From JALSIF01 sp026981635 [NCBI: bacterium] (lineage in GTDB: Bacteria; 4484-113; JALSIF01): a stretch of DNA of 8,581 bases. The stretch spans positions 1 to 8,581 of the forward strand of contig JALSIF010000304.1 of assembly GCA_026981635.1 (NCBI GenBank), written 5' to 3'. Shown one piece after another: positions 1-8,121 of this stretch. The position numbers and the translations under genes were made by a program. Below the pieces are notes generated by a model. That model was not told the DNA's origin and ran no database searches. It saw only the letters and a list, made by a program, of their open reading frames with translations. Numbering within the stretch: the first letter of the stretch is position 1; every line of letters starts with the position of its first letter.

Positions 1-987
1 CTCCTCCTCCTCGGTGGGAAAGCCCACCATGATGTCGGCACTGAGGGCCACCTCGGGGCAAACCTCCCTCAGATGCCGGCAGAGCTCAAGGTAGTCCCCC
101 ACCCGGTAGCGCCGGTTCATCGCCGCAAGCACCCGGTCGCTTCCCGACTGGAGGGGAAGGTGCAGGTGGGGACAGAGGGCGGGATGTTCTAGAAGCTCCA
201 CCACCCGCTGGCTGACCGACTCGGGCTCAATAGAGGAGATGCGCACCCGGGCCCTAGGGTAAGCAAGCTCAAGCACCCTAAAGAGCAGCTCGCCGAAGTC
301 AAACCCCTCCTCCGGCTCCTCATAGAAGCCGATGTTTACTCCGGTAAGGACGATCTCGCCGATCCCCTCCTCCAGCGCCCGCCGGACCTCCTCCCTGACC
401 CCCTGCCAGGGCAGGGAGAGGAAGGGGCGGGTCTGGGGGATGATGCAGAAGGTGCACATGGAGCGGCAGCCGTCCTGCACCTTGACGAAGCGGCGCACCC
501 GCTCGCTGCCAAAGGGGAGGAGGCCGGCGTGGTAGTCCACCCCTCCGCCTGCCCCGTTCGCCTGGACGGCAAGCTCAGCGGGCAGGTGGTTTCGGGGGTC
601 GTCCCCAAGCTCCTCAGCCAGCCGCAGAAATAGCTCTGCCGCCTGCTGGTAGTTTCTCACCACATGCACCCCCGAAAGCTCATCCTCATGCCTTCGGGTG
701 AGGGTCCTTGAGCGGGCCAGGCAGCCGGTGAGGATGATCCGCGTGCGGGGGTTTATGCGCCTTAGCCTCCTCATGAAGGCAAGGCACTCAAGCTCGGCCG
801 TCTCGGTGACCACGCAGGAGTTGATGAAGACCACCGGGTTCTCTATCCCCTGGGCTAGGCGGGCAAAATGGCGGGGAGAGGTGATCTCCAGGGGGAGGAA
901 GCCTGCCTCCCTAACCAGGCGGGCAAAGCCAAAGCTCTCCCCGTAGCTCACCTTGCAGCCGTAGCTCTTTATGAATACGCCAAGCAC
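1..987 (-). CDS. mtaB: MtaB-like tRNA (t6A37) methylthiotransferase, partial (C-terminus beyond window)
   Basis: This is a radical SAM methylthiotransferase. The MtaB family converts t6A37 to ms2t6A37 in tRNAs reading ANN codons, using two [4Fe-4S] clusters in the cytoplasm. Visible: N-terminal UPF0004-type cysteines at about residues 11 (YGCK), 58 (INSC) and 89 (TGC); the radical SAM CxxxCxxC motif at 174/178/181 in a QDGCRSMCTFC context; EIVLTG at 211-216; and SSIEP at 251-255, which resembles MtaB rather than MiaB (TSPHP). HLPLQSGS and ADIMVGFP follow. The usual Asn after GCKV is Ser here. The first 329 codons are present; the barrel end and TRAM domain lie outside the window. The start is the GTG at 987-985, chosen because it gives the family N-terminus and lies 9 nt after a perfect TATAAT, with no Shine-Dalgarno. 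The upstream RDD gene on the same strand ends 33 bp before it. Subfamily assignment is likely but not certain. Confidence 0.9.
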   Translation of the reverse strand, partial: MLGVFIKSYGCKVSYGESFGFARLVREAGFLPLEITSPRHFARLAQGIENPVVFINSCVVTETAELECLAFMRRLRRINPRTRIILTGCLARSRTLTRRHEDELSGVHVVRNYQQAAELFLRLAEELGDDPRNHLPAELAVQANGAGGGVDYHAGLLPFGSERVRRFVKVQDGCRSMCTFCIIPQTRPFLSLPWQGVREEVRRALEEGIGEIVLTGVNIGFYEEPEEGFDFGELLFRVLELAYPRARVRISSIEPESVSQRVVELLEHPALCPHLHLPLQSGSDRVLAAMNRRYRVGDYLELCRHLREVCPEVALSADIMVGFPTEEEE

Positions 988-996
988 GGTGGCTGA

Positions 997-1002
997 ATTA
1001 TA
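997..1002 (-). promoter_or_regulatory. -10 element (TATAAT) of the mtaB-like gene, leaderless type
   Basis: A perfect TATAAT on the minus strand lies in the 33-bp gap between the RDD gene and the mtaB-like gene. Nine bases (TCAGCCACC) separate it from the GTG start. A transcript starting about 7 nt after the hexamer would begin at or within a couple of bases of the start codon. No convincing -35 box and no Shine-Dalgarno is visible. The leaderless reading is inference. Confidence 0.7.
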
Positions 1003-1020: not shown

Positions 1021-1758
1021 TCAGAGGGTGCGGCTGGCCTGGTAGATCTGCCAGAGGGCGTTCTCCAGCTCAAGCAGGGAGCCGAAGCGCATGGGGTCAA
1101 CCCCGACAGCCCGGGCCACCTCCACCGCCAGCTCCTCCCGCACCTCCTGGCTGAGGTCGGGCCGGCGCATGAAGTAGTGGGCCAGCAGATCGGCCTCCGC
1201 CGGCTTGGCCGCCCGCTCGCTCCTGCTCAGGCGGGCGGTGGGGCTCTCTTCTGGCCGGGGCGGAGCCAGGGGCTGAGGCTCGCTCTCCACCACCAGGGTC
1301 CCCGCCACCAGGTCCCCCAGCCGCTGGGCGCGAGGGGTAACCCAGATGAGCAGGACTCCGAGCACGTATAGACTGGGCATGAAATCGGCCAGCCGGAGCA
1401 GGTTGCGGTAGAAGCACTGGCCCAGGGTGGGAGCGGTGCCATCCTCCCCCACCACCCTGATCCCCATCAGCACCTTGCCCGGGGTAGCACCCCGCCAGCG
1501 GTACTCAAACAGGATGTGCCAGCCGTGGATGGTGAGGAGGAGAAGGGAGACGCCCACCAGGGGGGTGAGCAGGTTCCTCTCCCACGGCTCGCCCAGCCGG
1601 CCGGTGGCGAGATAGGTAAGGAGCAGAAGGAGGGAGAGCAGGGCAAGGAAGATGGCCTGGTCAATGAGGTAGGCGGCCAGCCGCCGGGTGAAGGCGGCCA
1701 GGGGGAGCTCAATCCTCACCTGGTCCGGCGAGAGCAGGGATGCACGGGGGCCCTCCAC
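1021..1758 (-). CDS. RDD family membrane protein with cytoplasmic C-terminal extension
   Basis: The protein is 245 aa. The RDD domain occupies about residues 18-157: the RRLAAYLID signature at 25-33 runs into a first membrane segment (about 31-50), a second hydrophobic segment lies at 63-84, GATPGK at 90-95 with GIRVV after it, and the third conserved block runs from RNLLRLAD (118-125) to QRLGDLVAGT (145-154). The remaining 88 residues are soluble and charged, with a helical LLAHYFMRRPDLS-type segment; similar tails are known on RDD proteins encoded beside SpoIIM-like genes. The molecular function is not established for this family; transport or membrane-complex roles have been proposed. The GTG at 1758-1756 is chosen because it precedes the first RDD block by about 24 residues and sits 7 nt after a minus-strand TATTAT. 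A longer reading to an ATG at 1974 would run through the divergent SpoIIM-like gene and add a non-family N-terminus. A TTG at 1761 is a possible alternative start. Confidence 0.88.
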   Translation of the reverse strand: MEGPRASLLSPDQVRIELPLAAFTRRLAAYLIDQAIFLALLSLLLLLTYLATGRLGEPWERNLLTPLVGVSLLLLTIHGWHILFEYRWRGATPGKVLMGIRVVGEDGTAPTLGQCFYRNLLRLADFMPSLYVLGVLLIWVTPRAQRLGDLVAGTLVVESEPQPLAPPRPEESPTARLSRSERAAKPAEADLLAHYFMRRPDLSQEVREELAVEVARAVGVDPMRFGSLLELENALWQIYQASRTL

Positions 1759-1764
1759 CAAACC

Positions 1765-1770
1765 TATAAT
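1765..1770 (+). promoter_or_regulatory. -10 element (TATAAT) for the SpoIIM-like/dnaX unit, leaderless type
   Basis: A perfect TATAAT is followed by 7 bases (AGCCCCG) and the GTG start at 1778. No -35 consensus is visible at 16-18 bp upstream, and there is no Shine-Dalgarno, so the transcript is probably leaderless. It overlaps the minus-strand -10 at 1766-1771. It would drive the SpoIIM-like gene, dnaX and possibly ybaB. Confidence 0.72.
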
Positions 1771-1771
1771 A
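1766..1771 (-). promoter_or_regulatory. -10 element (TATTAT) for the RDD gene, overlapping the opposite-strand -10
   Basis: On the minus strand the same AT-rich island reads TATTAT, one mismatch from consensus. Seven bases (AGGTTTG) separate it from the GTG at 1758. The island CTATAATAG (1764-1772) is palindromic except at its centre, so one site can serve RNA polymerase in both directions. Assignment rests on position and symmetry only. Confidence 0.6.
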
Positions 1772-1777
1772 GCCCCG

Positions 1778-2821
1778 GTGGCCGAGCTGAGACGAGCACC
1801 CCCCTCCTCCCACCCCGAGCAGTGGAAACGGTTCTCCGAGCTTCTTGCCCGCCTGGAGCTGGGCCAGGGGAGAAACCTGAGCCTCACCGACAAGGTTGAG
1901 CTTATGCGCCTCTTTCGGATGGTCCAGGCCGACCTGGCCCTGGCCCGCCAGCAGGGGGCTGACCCCGACCTCATTGACTACCTCAACCGCCTGCTGGTGC
2001 GCGCCTATCCGGTGTTGATGCCCCCTCCCCCCCTCACCCTCCCCTCCCCCGCCCGTCTGCTCACCCTCTTTGCCGCCCGCCTCCTGGCCATCCGCGGCTA
2101 CCTCCTGCTTGCCGCCCTCATCCTGCTGGCAGGAGCCGCCCTGGGAGCCTACCAGTACCTCTTTCTGCCCGACTACCACCCCCCCTTCATCTCGGCCGAG
2201 GTGGTGGGCAGCTACGAGACCCAGCTCAGGGTGGCCCGTGAGCAGGGAATTGAGAGCGGTCCTGAGCTCCGGCTGGCCGCCGCCATCCAACCAGGGGAGA
2301 TGTGGGCCGCCTCCCAGATGATCATGTGGAACAACATCCGGGTAGCCCTAGTGGTCTTTGGCGTGGGGCTTCTTCTGGGGGCACTCACCTACCTCATTGT
2401 CTTCGTCAACGGCTACCTGGTGGGGACCCTGGCGGCAGTCTACTTCACCCAGGGCTATGGGGGCTACTTCATCGCTGGCGTCGCCCCCCACGGCCTGGTG
2501 GAGCTTACCGTGATCGCCTTTGCCGCTGGGGCAGGGATCGCCCTGGGCAACGCCTGGCTCTTCCCCGGCGAGCTTCCCCGCCTGGAGGCCCTGCGCCAAC
2601 GGGCCCGGCAGCTTCTTCCGGTGGTGGTGGGAAGCGTCCTCATCCTCGTCCCCACCGGTCTGGTGGAGGGCTTTGTCACCCCCCTGCGCATTGAGGCCCT
2701 CTCCACCGAACTGCTCTTTGCCCTCAAAACCCTCTTTGGCATCGTCTACCTGGCCCTGGTATGGTTTCTTATCCTCTGGGCTTACCGTAGAGCAGCGGCG
2801 GAGGAGGCATCCCGTGAGTGA
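1778..2821 (+). CDS. SpoIIM-like (DUF95) integral membrane protein
   Basis: The protein is 347 aa and belongs to the stage II sporulation protein M-like family. The cytoplasmic N-terminus (about 1-95) has the usual pattern: W16 and F19-SELL, then LSLTDKVELMRLFRMVQADLA, then a Pro-rich stretch at 78-91. Membrane segments lie at about 107-129, 188-209, 213-224 with 228-259, 281-299 and 314-336. Conserved family marks include NNIRVA (185-190), NG (211-212), PHGLVE (237-242) and the late GLVEGFVTP (294-302). In Bacillus the homologue is part of an engulfment complex, but the family is widespread in non-sporulating bacteria beside RDD genes, so sporulation is not implied. The GTG at 1778 is chosen over the ATG at 1688, which lies inside the RDD gene. 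It is translationally coupled to dnaX by an 8-bp overlap, an uncommon upstream partner for dnaX. Its exact biochemical role is unknown. Confidence 0.87.
   Translation: MAELRRAPPSSHPEQWKRFSELLARLELGQGRNLSLTDKVELMRLFRMVQADLALARQQGADPDLIDYLNRLLVRAYPVLMPPPPLTLPSPARLLTLFAARLLAIRGYLLLAALILLAGAALGAYQYLFLPDYHPPFISAEVVGSYETQLRVAREQGIESGPELRLAAAIQPGEMWAASQMIMWNNIRVALVVFGVGLLLGALTYLIVFVNGYLVGTLAAVYFTQGYGGYFIAGVAPHGLVELTVIAFAAGAGIALGNAWLFPGELPRLEALRQRARQLLPVVVGSVLILVPTGLVEGFVTPLRIEALSTELLFALKTLFGIVYLALVWFLILWAYRRAAAEEASRE
2800..2807 (+). promoter_or_regulatory. Shine-Dalgarno of dnaX (GGAGGAGG)
   Basis: A strong purine-rich ribosome binding site lies 6 nt before the GTG at 2814, inside the last codons of the SpoIIM-like gene. 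It decides the dnaX start and contrasts with the promoter-proximal genes of this window, which lack such a site. Confidence 0.85.
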
Positions 2822-4517
2822 CCACTACCAGACCCTCTACCGCAAGTACCGCCCCCAGGTCTTTGCCGAGGTGGTGGGGCAGGAGCTCATCGTCAGGGCG
2901 CTCAAAAACTCGGTCGCCCAGGGACGCATCGCCCACTCCTACCTCTTTGCCGGCCCCCGCGGGCTGGGCAAGACCAGCCTGGCGCGGATATTTGCCAAGG
3001 CCATTAACTGCCCCAATGTCAAGGAGGGCGAGCCCTGCGGGGAGTGCCACGTCTGCACCTCCATCGCCGAGGGTAGCGCCATTGATGTCCACGAGTTTGA
3101 CGCCGCCAGTCACCGGAGCGTAGAGGAGGTGCAGGAGATCCTGCTTGCCAATCTCCACCAGCTTCCCGCCGAGCTTGCCTACAAGGTCTACATCATTGAC
3201 GAGGTCCACATGATCAGCCGCCACGCCTTCAACTCCCTGCTCAAGATCTTTGAGGAGCCCCCCCGCCACGTGGTCTTCATTCTTTGCACCACCGAGCCGG
3301 ACCAGATCCCCATCACCATCCGCAGCCGCTGCCTCTCCTTCCTCTTCCGCCGGGTTCCCCAGCAGGCCCTGGCCGCCCACCTCAGGCGGGTGGCCGAGCA
3401 GGAGGGGGTGAGCCTGGCTCCCCCCGCCGCCGAGCTACTTGCCCGCCTGGCCGAGGGGTCGGTGCGCGACGCCCTCTCCCTGCTTGAGCAGGTGATGGGC
3501 TACGGCGACGGCCAGATTGACCGCGGGCTGGTGAGGGAGGTGCTGGGGGTGGCCCTGCCCGACCGGCTGGCCGAGGTCTACGCCGCCATCTGCCGGGGCG
3601 AGGGGGCCGAGGCGGTGGCCATCTTCAAGCAGATGCTTGCCGAGGGGATGGACCCCGACCGATTCCTCTACGAGCTTGCCGAGGTGGCCACCGACTACCT
3701 GAGCGAGCGGCAGGCGCTGGCCGAGGAGCTGGGCGAGGCGGCCTTCGCCACCCTGGACGGGGCGCTGAGCTCCCTGCCCCCCGGCCGGCTGGTGGAGGGG
3801 CTGGAGGCCCTCTGGGAGGTGGCCCGGGAGGTGCGCTACGCCTCCCACTCGCCCCTGCTGGTGGAGATGCTGATGCTCAGGCTGGCTGAGATCTTTACCC
3901 GCACCTCCGCCCCCGCGCCGGCGGCCGTACAACCAACGGCTGCTCCCCTTGACAAACAGGCCGCAGCCACCCCTCCACCCCCCACCACACAGGGGAAACC
4001 CGCCCCCAAGAAGAAGGAGGAGCGCAGGCGCCCCGCCATCATCTCCCTCAAGGATGAAACCACCTCCCGCCAAGCCCCCTCTGAACCTTCCCCTCTTCCC
4101 CCTCCCGACCCCCACTGGATCAAGGTGCTGGACAAGGTGCGCGAGATAAGCGTCCCCGCCTGGGCCATCCTGGCCAGCGGCGCCCTGGGGTTGGAGAAGC
4201 GGGAGGGCAAGTACTACCTGCTACCCATGCCGGAAAACGACTTCGCCTTCAAGCTGGCCGAGCGGGAAAGCTTTGTGGTCCGTGCGCTTACTGCCGCCCT
4301 CGGCGAGCTGGGCGATGAGACCCCGCTGGGATTTGGCCCCCCCCTCCCCCGGCCCAAGCCAGCCAAGGCCACCCCTGACCCCGTAAGCTCCATCTTTGCC
4401 GGCGAGGATGGAGAAGAGGCCGACCGCCCCGCCGACGCCTACCCCTCAGGGGACGCCCTCATCGCCGACCTGATTGAGCTTGATCCCGGGGCCAAGCCCA
4501 TCGGCGAGGGGGACTAG
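2814..4517 (+). CDS. dnaX: DNA polymerase III subunit gamma/tau (DnaX)
   Basis: The protein is 567 aa and is the AAA+ ATPase of the clamp loader, which opens the beta clamp and loads it on primed DNA. Motifs: YRKYRP and VVGQ at 9-23; Walker A GPRGLGKT at 47-54; a zinc site at C66, C75, C78 and C81; DAAS at 96-99; Walker B IIDEVHM at 127-133; FNSLLKIFEEPP at 139-150; sensor 1 in CTTEPD (158-163); and the SRC arginine finger at 171-173. The collar domain runs to about 360. A Pro/Ala/Lys-rich linker follows at about 363-433. A C-terminal domain starting at WIKVLDKV is of the kind seen in long DnaX proteins. The GTG start is set by the Shine-Dalgarno at 2800-2807 and gives the canonical N-terminus. 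It overlaps the SpoIIM-like gene by 8 bp. No slippery A-run is present in the linker, so a frameshifted gamma form like that of E. coli is not indicated. Confidence 0.97.
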   Translation: MSDHYQTLYRKYRPQVFAEVVGQELIVRALKNSVAQGRIAHSYLFAGPRGLGKTSLARIFAKAINCPNVKEGEPCGECHVCTSIAEGSAIDVHEFDAASHRSVEEVQEILLANLHQLPAELAYKVYIIDEVHMISRHAFNSLLKIFEEPPRHVVFILCTTEPDQIPITIRSRCLSFLFRRVPQQALAAHLRRVAEQEGVSLAPPAAELLARLAEGSVRDALSLLEQVMGYGDGQIDRGLVREVLGVALPDRLAEVYAAICRGEGAEAVAIFKQMLAEGMDPDRFLYELAEVATDYLSERQALAEELGEAAFATLDGALSSLPPGRLVEGLEALWEVAREVRYASHSPLLVEMLMLRLAEIFTRTSAPAPAAVQPTAAPLDKQAAATPPPPTTQGKPAPKKKEERRRPAIISLKDETTSRQAPSEPSPLPPPDPHWIKVLDKVREISVPAWAILASGALGLEKREGKYYLLPMPENDFAFKLAERESFVVRALTAALGELGDETPLGFGPPLPRPKPAKATPDPVSSIFAGEDGEEADRPADAYPSGDALIADLIELDPGAKPIGEGD

Positions 4518-4570: not shown

Positions 4571-4903
4571 ATGGACATCAGAAAGCTCATGCAGCAGGCC
4601 CAGAAGATGCAGCAGCAGCTCAAGGAGCAGCTCAAGGAGGCGGAGGAGGAGCTGGCCTCCACCCTGATTGAGGGCAGCGCCGGCGGAGGCCTGGTGAAGG
4701 TGACGGTAAACGGCAAGAAGCAGCTCATCAAGGTGGAGATATCCCCCGAGGCGGTGGACCCGGAGGATGTGGCCACCCTGGAAGACCTGGTCTTTGCGGC
4801 GGTCAAATCTGCCCTGGACCAGGCCGACCAGAAGCGGGAGGAGATCATGGGGGCGGTGACCCAGGAGCTGGGCATCCCGCCCATGGGCCTGCCCGGCCTC
4901 TAG
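4571..4903 (+). CDS. ybaB: YbaB/EbfC family nucleoid-associated DNA-binding protein
   Basis: The protein is 110 aa, the usual length for the family. It forms tweezer-shaped dimers that bind DNA and coat the nucleoid, affecting expression and repair. The N-terminal helix is Gln/Lys/Glu-rich (MQQAQKMQQQLKEQL-type, residues about 7-30). The conserved core has a Gly-rich turn GSAGGGLVKVTVNGKK at 38-53, then IKVEISPEAVDPEDVATLEDL and a C-terminal helix containing DQADQKREEIMG. The start ATG at 4571 is the family start; a weak AGGTAG lies just upstream. It follows dnaX in the conserved order, but recR, the usual third member, does not follow. The gene ends in a 4-bp tail-to-tail overlap with the minus-strand membrane gene. 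Confidence 0.95.
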   Translation: MDIRKLMQQAQKMQQQLKEQLKEAEEELASTLIEGSAGGGLVKVTVNGKKQLIKVEISPEAVDPEDVATLEDLVFAAVKSALDQADQKREEIMGAVTQELGIPPMGLPGL

Positions 4904-4910
4904 CCAGGCC
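4895..4910. other. Short inverted repeat at the convergent gene ends
   Basis: GGCCT (4895-4899) and AGGCC (4906-4910) can pair around the shared CTAG stop overlap. The stem is only 5 bp and neither strand has a following T-run, so any bidirectional terminator function is doubtful. It is the only hairpin-like element seen between the two converging units. Confidence 0.25.
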
Positions 4911-5652
4911 TTCCTCGCTCCTCAAGACCCTCCAGCCGCTTGAGGTAGTGGCGGTAGGTGTTTATGGCCCGCCGGTCGCCCTGCTCCTCGGCGATCCTCA
5001 GGTTATCCTCAGCGAGCCTCCTTGCCTCCGCCAGCCGCTCCTCATAGATCAGCTCCTCCAGCACCGGATCCTCGGTGGGCAGCTCGCGGATCATGCGGTA
5101 GAACTCAAGCCTGCCCTGGGTTGACCAGCCGGCGTGGCGGATGGCCCGGGCCGCCCGCGAGCCCACCCGCCGCACAACGGGAGCCAGCCGCTCGCTCTGG
5201 CGAGAGAGGAAGTCGGAAAGCCTGCGGCTCTGGCGCTCAAAGCTAAACACCGCCAAGAGGCGGGAGAGGTAGCGCTCCCTTAGGCGCGAGAGGTAGAGCT
5301 CCATCTTGCGGCGCGCCCTGAGGTAGGCCAGCATCCGCTCCTCGGCCCTCTTTCGGCGGATGTATTCGGCAAGCTCCGGGCTGCCGTAGAGGCCAAGCTC
5401 CTCCTCCTCCAGATCATGCTCCACCAGGGGGCTTACCCGATACATCAGGTAGAAGGCATATCCCCCGCCCGGTACGGCCGCCGCAATCAGCGCCCAGAAG
5501 AGGCCCTTGTTGTAGCGATACTGGGCGTCGCGGTAGACCCACCAGATGTGGTAGAGGTAGAGCAGGAGGAGCACAGCGAGGGCTGCGAGCAGGGGGATCT
5601 GGCCGATGTTTTCGGCCAGCCAGTGTTTGAGGTAGCGAAGGTAGAAGCCCAT
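4900..5652 (-). CDS. Unrecognised membrane protein with two N-terminal helices and a long charged tail
   Basis: The protein is 250 aa and of unknown function. Two membrane helices at about 18-40 and 51-71 are separated by a short polar loop: WVYRDA at 38-43, then YNKGLFWAL. The W-x-YRDA loop followed by a Gly/Pro-containing helix resembles hairpins seen in other uncharacterised bacterial and archaeal membrane proteins, but no family is claimed. Residues about 80-180 are very rich in Arg, Glu and Leu with coiled-coil character (LSRLRERYLSRLL-like). Residues about 193-243 form two amphipathic helices that could be a single TPR-like hairpin (EERLAEARRLAEDN, then INTYRHYLKRLE). No catalytic motif is visible. 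It lies 24 bp downstream of mutS2 on the same strand, so it is probably co-transcribed. Its stop shares CTAG with the ybaB stop. A weak TAGTCT lies 11 nt before the ATG, and AGGCGGG is the only Shine-Dalgarno-like sequence. Confidence 0.8.
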   Translation of the reverse strand: MGFYLRYLKHWLAENIGQIPLLAALAVLLLLYLYHIWWVYRDAQYRYNKGLFWALIAAAVPGGGYAFYLMYRVSPLVEHDLEEEELGLYGSPELAEYIRRKRAEERMLAYLRARRKMELYLSRLRERYLSRLLAVFSFERQSRRLSDFLSRQSERLAPVVRRVGSRAARAIRHAGWSTQGRLEFYRMIRELPTEDPVLEELIYEERLAEARRLAEDNLRIAEEQGDRRAINTYRHYLKRLEGLEERGRPG

Positions 5653-8094: not shown

Positions 8095-8107
8095 CGCCGG
8101 CTCTGCC

Positions 8108-8113
8108 TATAAT
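8108..8113 (+). promoter_or_regulatory. -10 element (TATAAT) of the aminotransferase gene, leaderless type
   Basis: A perfect TATAAT lies in the 27-bp gap between divergent mutS2 and the aminotransferase gene. Eight bases (TTAGCGCC) separate it from the GTG at 8122. There is no room for a conventional Shine-Dalgarno leader and no -35 consensus is visible, since the upstream bases are the mutS2 5' end. Confidence 0.7.
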
Positions 8114-8116
8114 TTA
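8111..8116 (-). promoter_or_regulatory. Candidate -10 element (TAAATT) for mutS2
   Basis: On the minus strand the same AT-rich island reads TAAATTATAG. TAAATT keeps the important T-A...T positions and lies 16 nt before the mutS2 ATG, giving a 5' leader of about 10 nt. No Shine-Dalgarno is seen. This call is weaker than the three perfect TATAAT sites. Confidence 0.4.
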
Positions 8117-8121
8117 GCGCC

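What the first reader, a model, noticed from the sequence alone, without database searches (positions are those of the whole stretch)
1756..1780. Divergent RDD and SpoIIM-like genes share a near-palindromic -10 in a 19-bp intergenic region
The two GTG starts are 19 bp apart. The only AT-rich island, CTATAATAG, gives TATAAT on the plus strand and TATTAT on the minus strand, each exactly 7 nt from its GTG. Each gene would be transcribed from or next to its first codon, and each promoter's upstream DNA is the other gene's coding sequence. Divergent transcription from symmetrical -10 elements is known in bacteria, but two leaderless genes on one symmetrical hexamer with no other intergenic DNA is an extreme case. 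The two products are likely membrane partners, so the site would balance them by mutually exclusive initiation.
Basis: partly seen in the sequence, partly recalled or inferred. Interest (0 to 1): 0.7.

Follow-up and report, generated by a model that had tools for sequence, protein, structure and literature searches.

The report
Shared minimal promoter between divergent genes
Two genes that point away from each other seem to be switched on from one tiny, nearly symmetrical DNA signal, with no other DNA between them; it is a very compact version of a known kind of two-way bacterial promoter, and similar cases turn up in other bacteria.

Summary
TATAAT 6-10 nt before starts is a habit of this genome, so leaderless transcription is well supported. 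The core TATAATA has the spacing of the commonest published bidirectional promoter (start sites 18 bp apart). I read it as a double-leaderless bidirectional promoter: a new variant of a known kind. It is not unique: loci found with its pattern give eight further gene pairs with Pfam hits on both sides, in Actinomycetota and in the window's class. In Kribbella's family the base that gives the symmetry is A in 10 of 10 loci with the divergent partner at 17-19 bp and in 0 of 17 with a distant one or none, but only three tree comparisons are independent. Against: the bare pattern is not in excess of its reversed control in three of four genome sets. That mutually exclusive initiation balances the two proteins is unproven; five tested E. 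coli promoters showed little competition at basal activity. SpoIIM overlaps dnaX, so the plus side probably also feeds dnaX.

The parts
1765..1770 (+). -10 element TATAAT for spoIIM(-dnaX), 7 nt before GTG 1778
   Evidence: sequence; TATAATN7RTG 15 vs 0 control in the genome
1766..1771 (-). -10 element TATTAT for the RDD gene, 7 nt before GTG 1758; overlaps the plus -10 by 5 bp
   Evidence: sequence; several TANNNT forms are enriched 6-8 nt before starts, but the only TATTAT there in the sample is this site itself
1759..1777 (.). whole intergenic region, 19 bp: the shared core and its two spacers; inferred TSS 1777 (+) and 1759 (-), 18 bp apart, or 1778 and 1758 if exactly leaderless
   Evidence: sequence; TSS inferred as 7 bp after position -7
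1021..1758 (-). RDD family membrane protein, GTG start, 245 aa
   Evidence: PF06271 E 1.7e-23
1778..2821 (+). SpoIIM family membrane protein, GTG start, 347 aa
   Evidence: PF01944 E 2.7e-30
2814..4517 (+). dnaX (DNA polymerase III gamma/tau), GTG start, overlaps the spoIIM end by 8 bp; likely cotranscribed
   Evidence: Pfam DNA_pol3_delta2, DNAX_ATPase_lid, DNA_pol3_gamma3; overlap read from the sequence; cotranscription is inference

Best explanation
A bidirectional sigma-70-type promoter cut down to its minimum. RNA polymerase binds the TATAATA core in either orientation; the base pairs at -11 and -7 of one direction serve as -7 and -11 of the other. RNA starts 0-1 nt before each GTG, so both mRNAs are (near-)leaderless and translated without a Shine-Dalgarno sequence. 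The plus RNA carries spoIIM and probably dnaX; the minus RNA carries the RDD gene. Only one polymerase can occupy the site at a time, but whether this regulates anything is open. Shown: sequence geometry, leaderless spacing as a habit of the genome, gene identities, recurrence of the layout at other gene pairs. Inferred: the actual start sites, use of both directions, cotranscription of dnaX.
For: Exact geometry. Leaderless spacing is a habit of this genome: 15 vs 0; in 41 stretches, 281,858 bp, TATAAT stands 6-10 nt before candidate starts 18 times (3.6 per offset) against 23 times over offsets 11-49 (0.6 per offset). TANNNTA is the published 18-bp bidirectional layout (PMC10268837 passages; PMC12825309 introduction). 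In the sample, 10 candidate divergent start pairs have TANNNT 5-10 nt before both starts, gaps 19-72 bp, against 6, 3 and 2 for the scrambles TNNNAT (which also accepts TATAAT), ATNNNT and TNNNTA, out of 1,109 candidate pairs; by arithmetic this is the only one whose hexamers overlap. The same RDD/SpoIIM pair has leaderless-type -10s on both sides in two Actinomycetota loci, L303 (22 bp) and L299 (28 bp), i.e. 3 of 84 rows with the window. Other gene pairs share the layout, with Pfam hits on both partners for eight. In 30 NAT loci of the family of Kribbella rubisoli, chosen by protein, the symmetry base is A in 10 of 10 with the divergent GNAT gene at 17-19 bp, 3 of 3 with only a C-terminal GNAT piece (one of these at E 8e-4), 0 of 17 otherwise.
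Against: No transcript data. The only TATTAT at 6-8 nt in the sample is this site itself. No -35-plus-10 match on either side. The bare pattern against its reversed control: class 22 vs 15, eight genomes 18 vs 18, 100 Actinomycetota 189 vs 228, 97 genomes of the order of Kribbella 53 vs 132; the sums are my additions. The Kribbella-family association rests on 3 independent pairs, p 0.25; with the three remnant loci counted as partner absent it is 4 pairs, on average 2.8 the expected way and 1.2 without difference; in one of the 10 (L310) the plus -10 has lost its final T. No close relative has the pair, so this site's own conservation is untested.
Confidence: 0.6

Rival explanations
1. Only the plus direction is a real leaderless promoter (perfect TATAAT, for spoIIM-dnaX); the minus TATTAT is a by-product of -10 symmetry and the RDD gene is driven mainly from elsewhere.
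For: The plus hexamer is consensus; no other TATTAT stands at 6-8 nt in the sample; reverse starts arise from -10 near-symmetry alone (PMC10268837 passages). In L296 and L297 only SpoIIM has a leaderless-type -10.
Against: The minus hexamer also stands exactly 7 nt before the GTG that best fits the RDD N-terminus, and no sigma-70-like -35/-10 pair was found in 1650-1900.
Confidence: 0.23
2. The site is a regulatory switch: mutually exclusive initiation sets a ratio of two membrane partners.
For: The two hexamers overlap by 5 bp, so simultaneous binding is impossible; the pairing is widespread; overlapping divergent promoters couple expression in EcoRV (PMC5333194, passages).
Against: Five E. 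coli bidirectional promoters showed little competition at basal activity (PMC12825309, section 14); no -35 here; dnaX likely lies on the plus transcript; no RDD gene was found beside SpoIIM in the seven same-class genomes that have it.
Confidence: 0.12
3. One or both starts are mis-assigned: transcripts begin further upstream inside the partner gene and are translated otherwise.
For: Alternative in-frame starts exist (TTG 1761, GTG 1719, GTG 1688).
Against: GTG 1719 and GTG 1688 have no TANNNT at leaderless distance and TTG 1761 has it only 4 nt away (read); homology fits the two GTGs.
Confidence: 0.1

Closest known systems
Bidirectional promoters with a symmetrical -10, 18-bp class (Warman, Grainger and co-workers; PMC10268837, PMC12825309; the 2021 founding paper is not held and is known to me only through these)
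   Same: TANNNTA core, inferred starts 18 bp apart, shared -7/-11 positions, two mRNAs
   Different: Here both mRNAs would be leaderless and nothing but the core and its spacers separates the coding sequences; the words leaderless, untranslated and start codon do not occur in PMC12825309, nor leaderless in PMC10268837
-10 region adjacent to the ORF / leaderless genes (Deinococcus-Thermus PMC12340547; PMC3160421; M. tuberculosis PMC3898074; passages only)
   Same: TANNNT placed so that RNA starts at the start codon
   Different: The passages seen treat genes singly; the words divergent, bidirectional and symmetr do not occur in PMC12340547. PMC3898074 calls closely juxtaposed divergent promoters common and shows prpD and Rv1129c as divergent leaderless genes, but the passages do not describe a shared -10
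csoR-cueA divergon of Bradyrhizobium (PMC5057107, passages)
   Same: Overlapping -10 elements; csoR RNA starts at the A of its ATG
   Different: cueA has a 42-nt leader, both genes have -35 sequences, and a CsoR box overlaps; only one side is leaderless

Membership tests
Bidirectional promoter (shared symmetrical -10) | overlapping -10 elements with -7/-11 shared on both strands | tested here: met
   TATAATA at 1765-1771; layout from PMC10268837 passages
Bidirectional promoter (shared symmetrical -10) | mapped divergent TSSs 7-25 bp apart | not testable with these tools
   inferred 18 (or 20) bp apart; no transcript data
Leaderless gene | TANNNT with its first T about 12 bp before the start codon, as a genome-wide signal | tested here: met
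   first T 13 nt before each GTG; the 12 bp from PMC3160421
Leaderless gene | 5' end at the start codon, translated without SD | not testable with these tools
   no RNA or proteome data; the crude SD profile shows no clear peak but is not decisive
RDD family PF06271 / SpoIIM family PF01944 | profile match over the curated cut-off | tested here: met
   83.9 vs 24.1 bits and 105.9 vs 26.9 bits
Regulatory switch by mutually exclusive initiation | changing one direction alters the other | not testable with these tools
   needs reporter assays

The most novel reading that the evidence does not exclude
Double-leaderless bidirectional promoters are a recurrent, selected architecture in lineages rich in leaderless genes: the whole control region of two divergent genes shrinks to about 19 bp (core plus two spacers), the symmetry base is kept while the partner is present and lost when it goes, and the coding sequences of both genes double as each other's upstream promoter DNA.
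Probability: 0.4. Interest if true: 0.6.

Novelty: new variant of a known kind. Interest (0 to 1): 0.45.

Why it matters
If true, it points to a lower size limit for a working divergent control region in bacteria and joins two themes, leaderless mRNAs and bidirectional promoters. Because both RNAs start at their first codons, promoter symmetry and protein N-termini are locked together, which can be tested by comparing genomes. Cultured Kribbella with the acetyltransferase pair offer a direct experimental test that the fragmented source genome (1.7 Mb in 317 contigs) does not.

Tried and rejected
Chance AT island: rejected. Conservation of the exact site in relatives: not testable; of nine other class genomes seven have SpoIIM and none of these has RDD in the fetched flanks. 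The first genome-contig scan with the single protein confirmed no relative; the broad alignment was too diverse to search; a narrower one worked and returned the best 80 of more. Excess of the bare pattern over its reversed control: found only in the class set (22 vs 15), not (18 vs 18; 189 vs 228; 53 vs 132). Recurrence therefore rests on loci with genes on both sides: ORFs of 90 aa or more on both sides in 4 of 24 further sites (one, L181, with a doubtful 94-aa ORF, not counted as a gene pair), 5 of 30 against 1 of 30 for an ATNNNAT control, and 11 of 30, six of them the same NAT/GNAT pair; L186 is counted in all three sets. The one control locus (L258) by my reading itself carries overlapping TACTAT/TAGTAT. 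The 30-locus sets are what the tool chose to return (30 of 189 and 30 of 53 sites). Long ORFs on both sides are weak evidence in GC-rich DNA, hence the Pfam checks. Symmetry over the full 25 bp: not exceptional. One search compared 84 rows: L170 and L301 are the same site, and two divergent loci (L122, L134) were dropped by the script's criterion. Papers: PMC12825309 abstract and three sections plus a word search; PMC10268837, PMC12340547, PMC3898074, PMC3160421, PMC5333194, PMC5057107, PMC6457490 and PMC5898192 by passages only; PMC7612053 is not held. Listings and passages from searches for leaderless with bidirectional or divergent terms showed me no description of a double-leaderless shared -10; that is no proof of absence.

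Full report
Observation. The coordinates are right to the base. The RDD gene starts at GTG 1758-1756 on the minus strand and the SpoIIM gene at GTG 1778-1780 on the plus strand. Only 19 bp lie between them (1759-1777). TATAAT (1765-1770, +) and TATTAT (1771-1766, -) overlap by 5 bp and each stands 7 nt before its GTG. The 9-mer CTATAATAG occurs once in the window, expected 0.01. Both proteins are confirmed by Pfam.

Is the spacing meaningful? In the window's own genome (1,745,230 bases, 317 contigs) TATAATN7RTG occurs 15 times and its reversed control 0 times; two of the sequences occur on two contigs each, so about 13 are distinct. In 41 stretches (281,858 bp) TATAAT stands 6-10 nt before candidate start codons 18 times (3.6 per offset) against 23 times over offsets 11-49 (0.6 per offset). 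Several other TANNNT forms are enriched at 6-8 nt too, but the only TATTAT there is this site. So a -10 just before the start codon is a habit of this genome, as described for Deinococcus-Thermus (PMC12340547) and Actinobacteria (PMC3160421). The window's MiaB-like gene (GTG 987) and aminotransferase (GTG 8122) show it as well, at 9 and 8 nt. Among 1,109 candidate divergent start pairs of the sample, 10 have TANNNT 5-10 nt before both starts (gaps 19-72 bp), against 6, 3 and 2 for three scrambles, the first of which also accepts TATAAT. The window pair is the closest of the 10.

What is the shared element? The core reads TATAATA. In bidirectional promoters the commonest layout puts divergent starts 18 bp apart, with -7 and -11 shared by the two strands (PMC10268837 passages). 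TANNNTA is that layout. With starts 7 bp beyond position -7 they fall at 1777 and 1759, one base before each GTG; exactly leaderless starts would be 20 bp apart. No -35/-10 match was found on either side. Symmetry is confined to the core: over 25 bp, 16 positions match, a level that 8.7% of sampled 25-mers reach.

Context. The SpoIIM ORF overlaps the dnaX start (GTG 2814) by 8 bp, so the plus transcript probably includes dnaX (inference). RDD and SpoIIM stand head to head in 72 of 80 named loci (five have both genes on one strand, three have no RDD hit; the set is dominated by Bacillales) and in 13 of 16 actinobacterial loci. In the window's class seven of nine other genomes have SpoIIM, none with RDD in the fetched flanks. 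Of 84 divergent rows including the window (83 distinct sites), three have leaderless-type -10s on both sides: the window (19 bp), L303 (22 bp) and L299 (28 bp). In L303 the hexamers overlap by 2 bp and exactly leaderless starts would lie 23 bp apart, another distance named as common (PMC12825309, introduction). Two loci (L304, L305) have starts only 3 bp apart with the RDD -10 inside the first SpoIIM codons. So the window is an extreme, not the extreme.

Recurrence. CAYN6TANNNTAN6RTG occurs once in the own genome. Against its reversed control it gives 22 vs 15 in ten class genomes, 18 vs 18 in eight others, 189 vs 228 in 100 Actinomycetota and 53 vs 132 in 97 genomes of the order of Kribbella; sums by my addition. 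So as a bare pattern it is not enriched. But loci with ORFs of 90 aa or more on both sides are 5 of 30 against 1 of 30 for the ATNNNAT control, and 11 of 30, six of which are one orthologous pair. Pfam finds families on both sides for eight further gene pairs: arylamine acetyltransferase/GNAT, two glyoxalase-like genes, formiminotransferase/DUF302, HxlR/L-PSP, siderophore-interacting protein/M13 peptidase, NDK/alpha-amylase, DUF2344/GlcNAc 2-epimerase, and, in the window's class, QueA/radical SAM. Two more have a Pfam hit on one side: a PIG-L deacetylase pair seen in two genomes (L220 tested; L221 alike by eye) and a MoCF-domain gene (L179).

A test not chosen by pattern. NAT genes were fetched by protein from the family of the genome of Kribbella rubisoli and 30 upstream regions were read. 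All 30 keep a TANNNT-like hexamer 6-7 nt before the start (L310 has TAGCCC). The next base, which supplies the T of the opposite -10, is A in 10 of 10 loci with the divergent GNAT gene 17-19 bp away, A in 3 of 3 where only a C-terminal GNAT piece was found (L315 weakly, E 8e-4), C in 3 of 3 with GNAT at 29-84 bp, and C or G in 14 of 14 without it. On the NAT tree each trait needs five changes, but only three independent pairs can be formed without the remnant loci, all in the expected direction (p 0.25); with them, four pairs, on average 2.8 as expected and 1.2 without difference. This is suggestive, not proof, and concerns another gene pair.

Mechanism. Most likely one polymerase at a time binds in either orientation and makes one of two leaderless RNAs. 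Exclusion is a matter of geometry; regulation by it is not shown. In E. coli five bidirectional promoters showed little competition at basal activity, and repression of the divergent RNA when one side was strongly activated (PMC12825309). The nearest experimental precedent I found is csoR-cueA, with overlapping -10s and one leaderless side (PMC5057107, passages).

Verdict. A confirmed observation and a plausible double-leaderless bidirectional promoter: a new variant of a known kind, of moderate interest, with its recurrence elsewhere as the more interesting lead.

Noticed in passing
window 8095-8121: A second divergent pair, mutS2 (ATG 8094, -) and an aminotransferase (GTG 8122, +), is 27 bp apart around TATAATTTA: TATAAT (+) overlaps TAAATT (-) by 3 bp; plus side leaderless-type (8 nt), minus side with an inferred leader of about 10 nt.
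   Followed up: partly
window 987-1002 (-): The MiaB-like radical SAM gene has TATAAT 9 nt before its GTG, so it may have its own leaderless promoter downstream of the RDD gene.
   Followed up: no
L304 and L305 (Actinomycetota): RDD and SpoIIM starts are only 3 bp apart; the RDD -10 (TAGGTT, TAGTTT) lies inside the first codons of SpoIIM.
   Followed up: partly
L166 (Aeromicrobium sp. MAG): The RDD/SpoIIM gap holds a perfect palindrome ATGCTAGCAT with SD-like sequences on both sides: a possible shared symmetrical -10 with leaders (read by eye).
   Followed up: no
window 4900-5652 (-): A 250-aa ORF between ybaB and mutS2 with hydrophobic stretches by eye matches no Pfam family.
   Followed up: no
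G000 contigs C43/C290 and C51/C314: Identical promoter-start sequences on two contigs each suggest overlapping or redundant contigs in this fragmented assembly.
   Followed up: no
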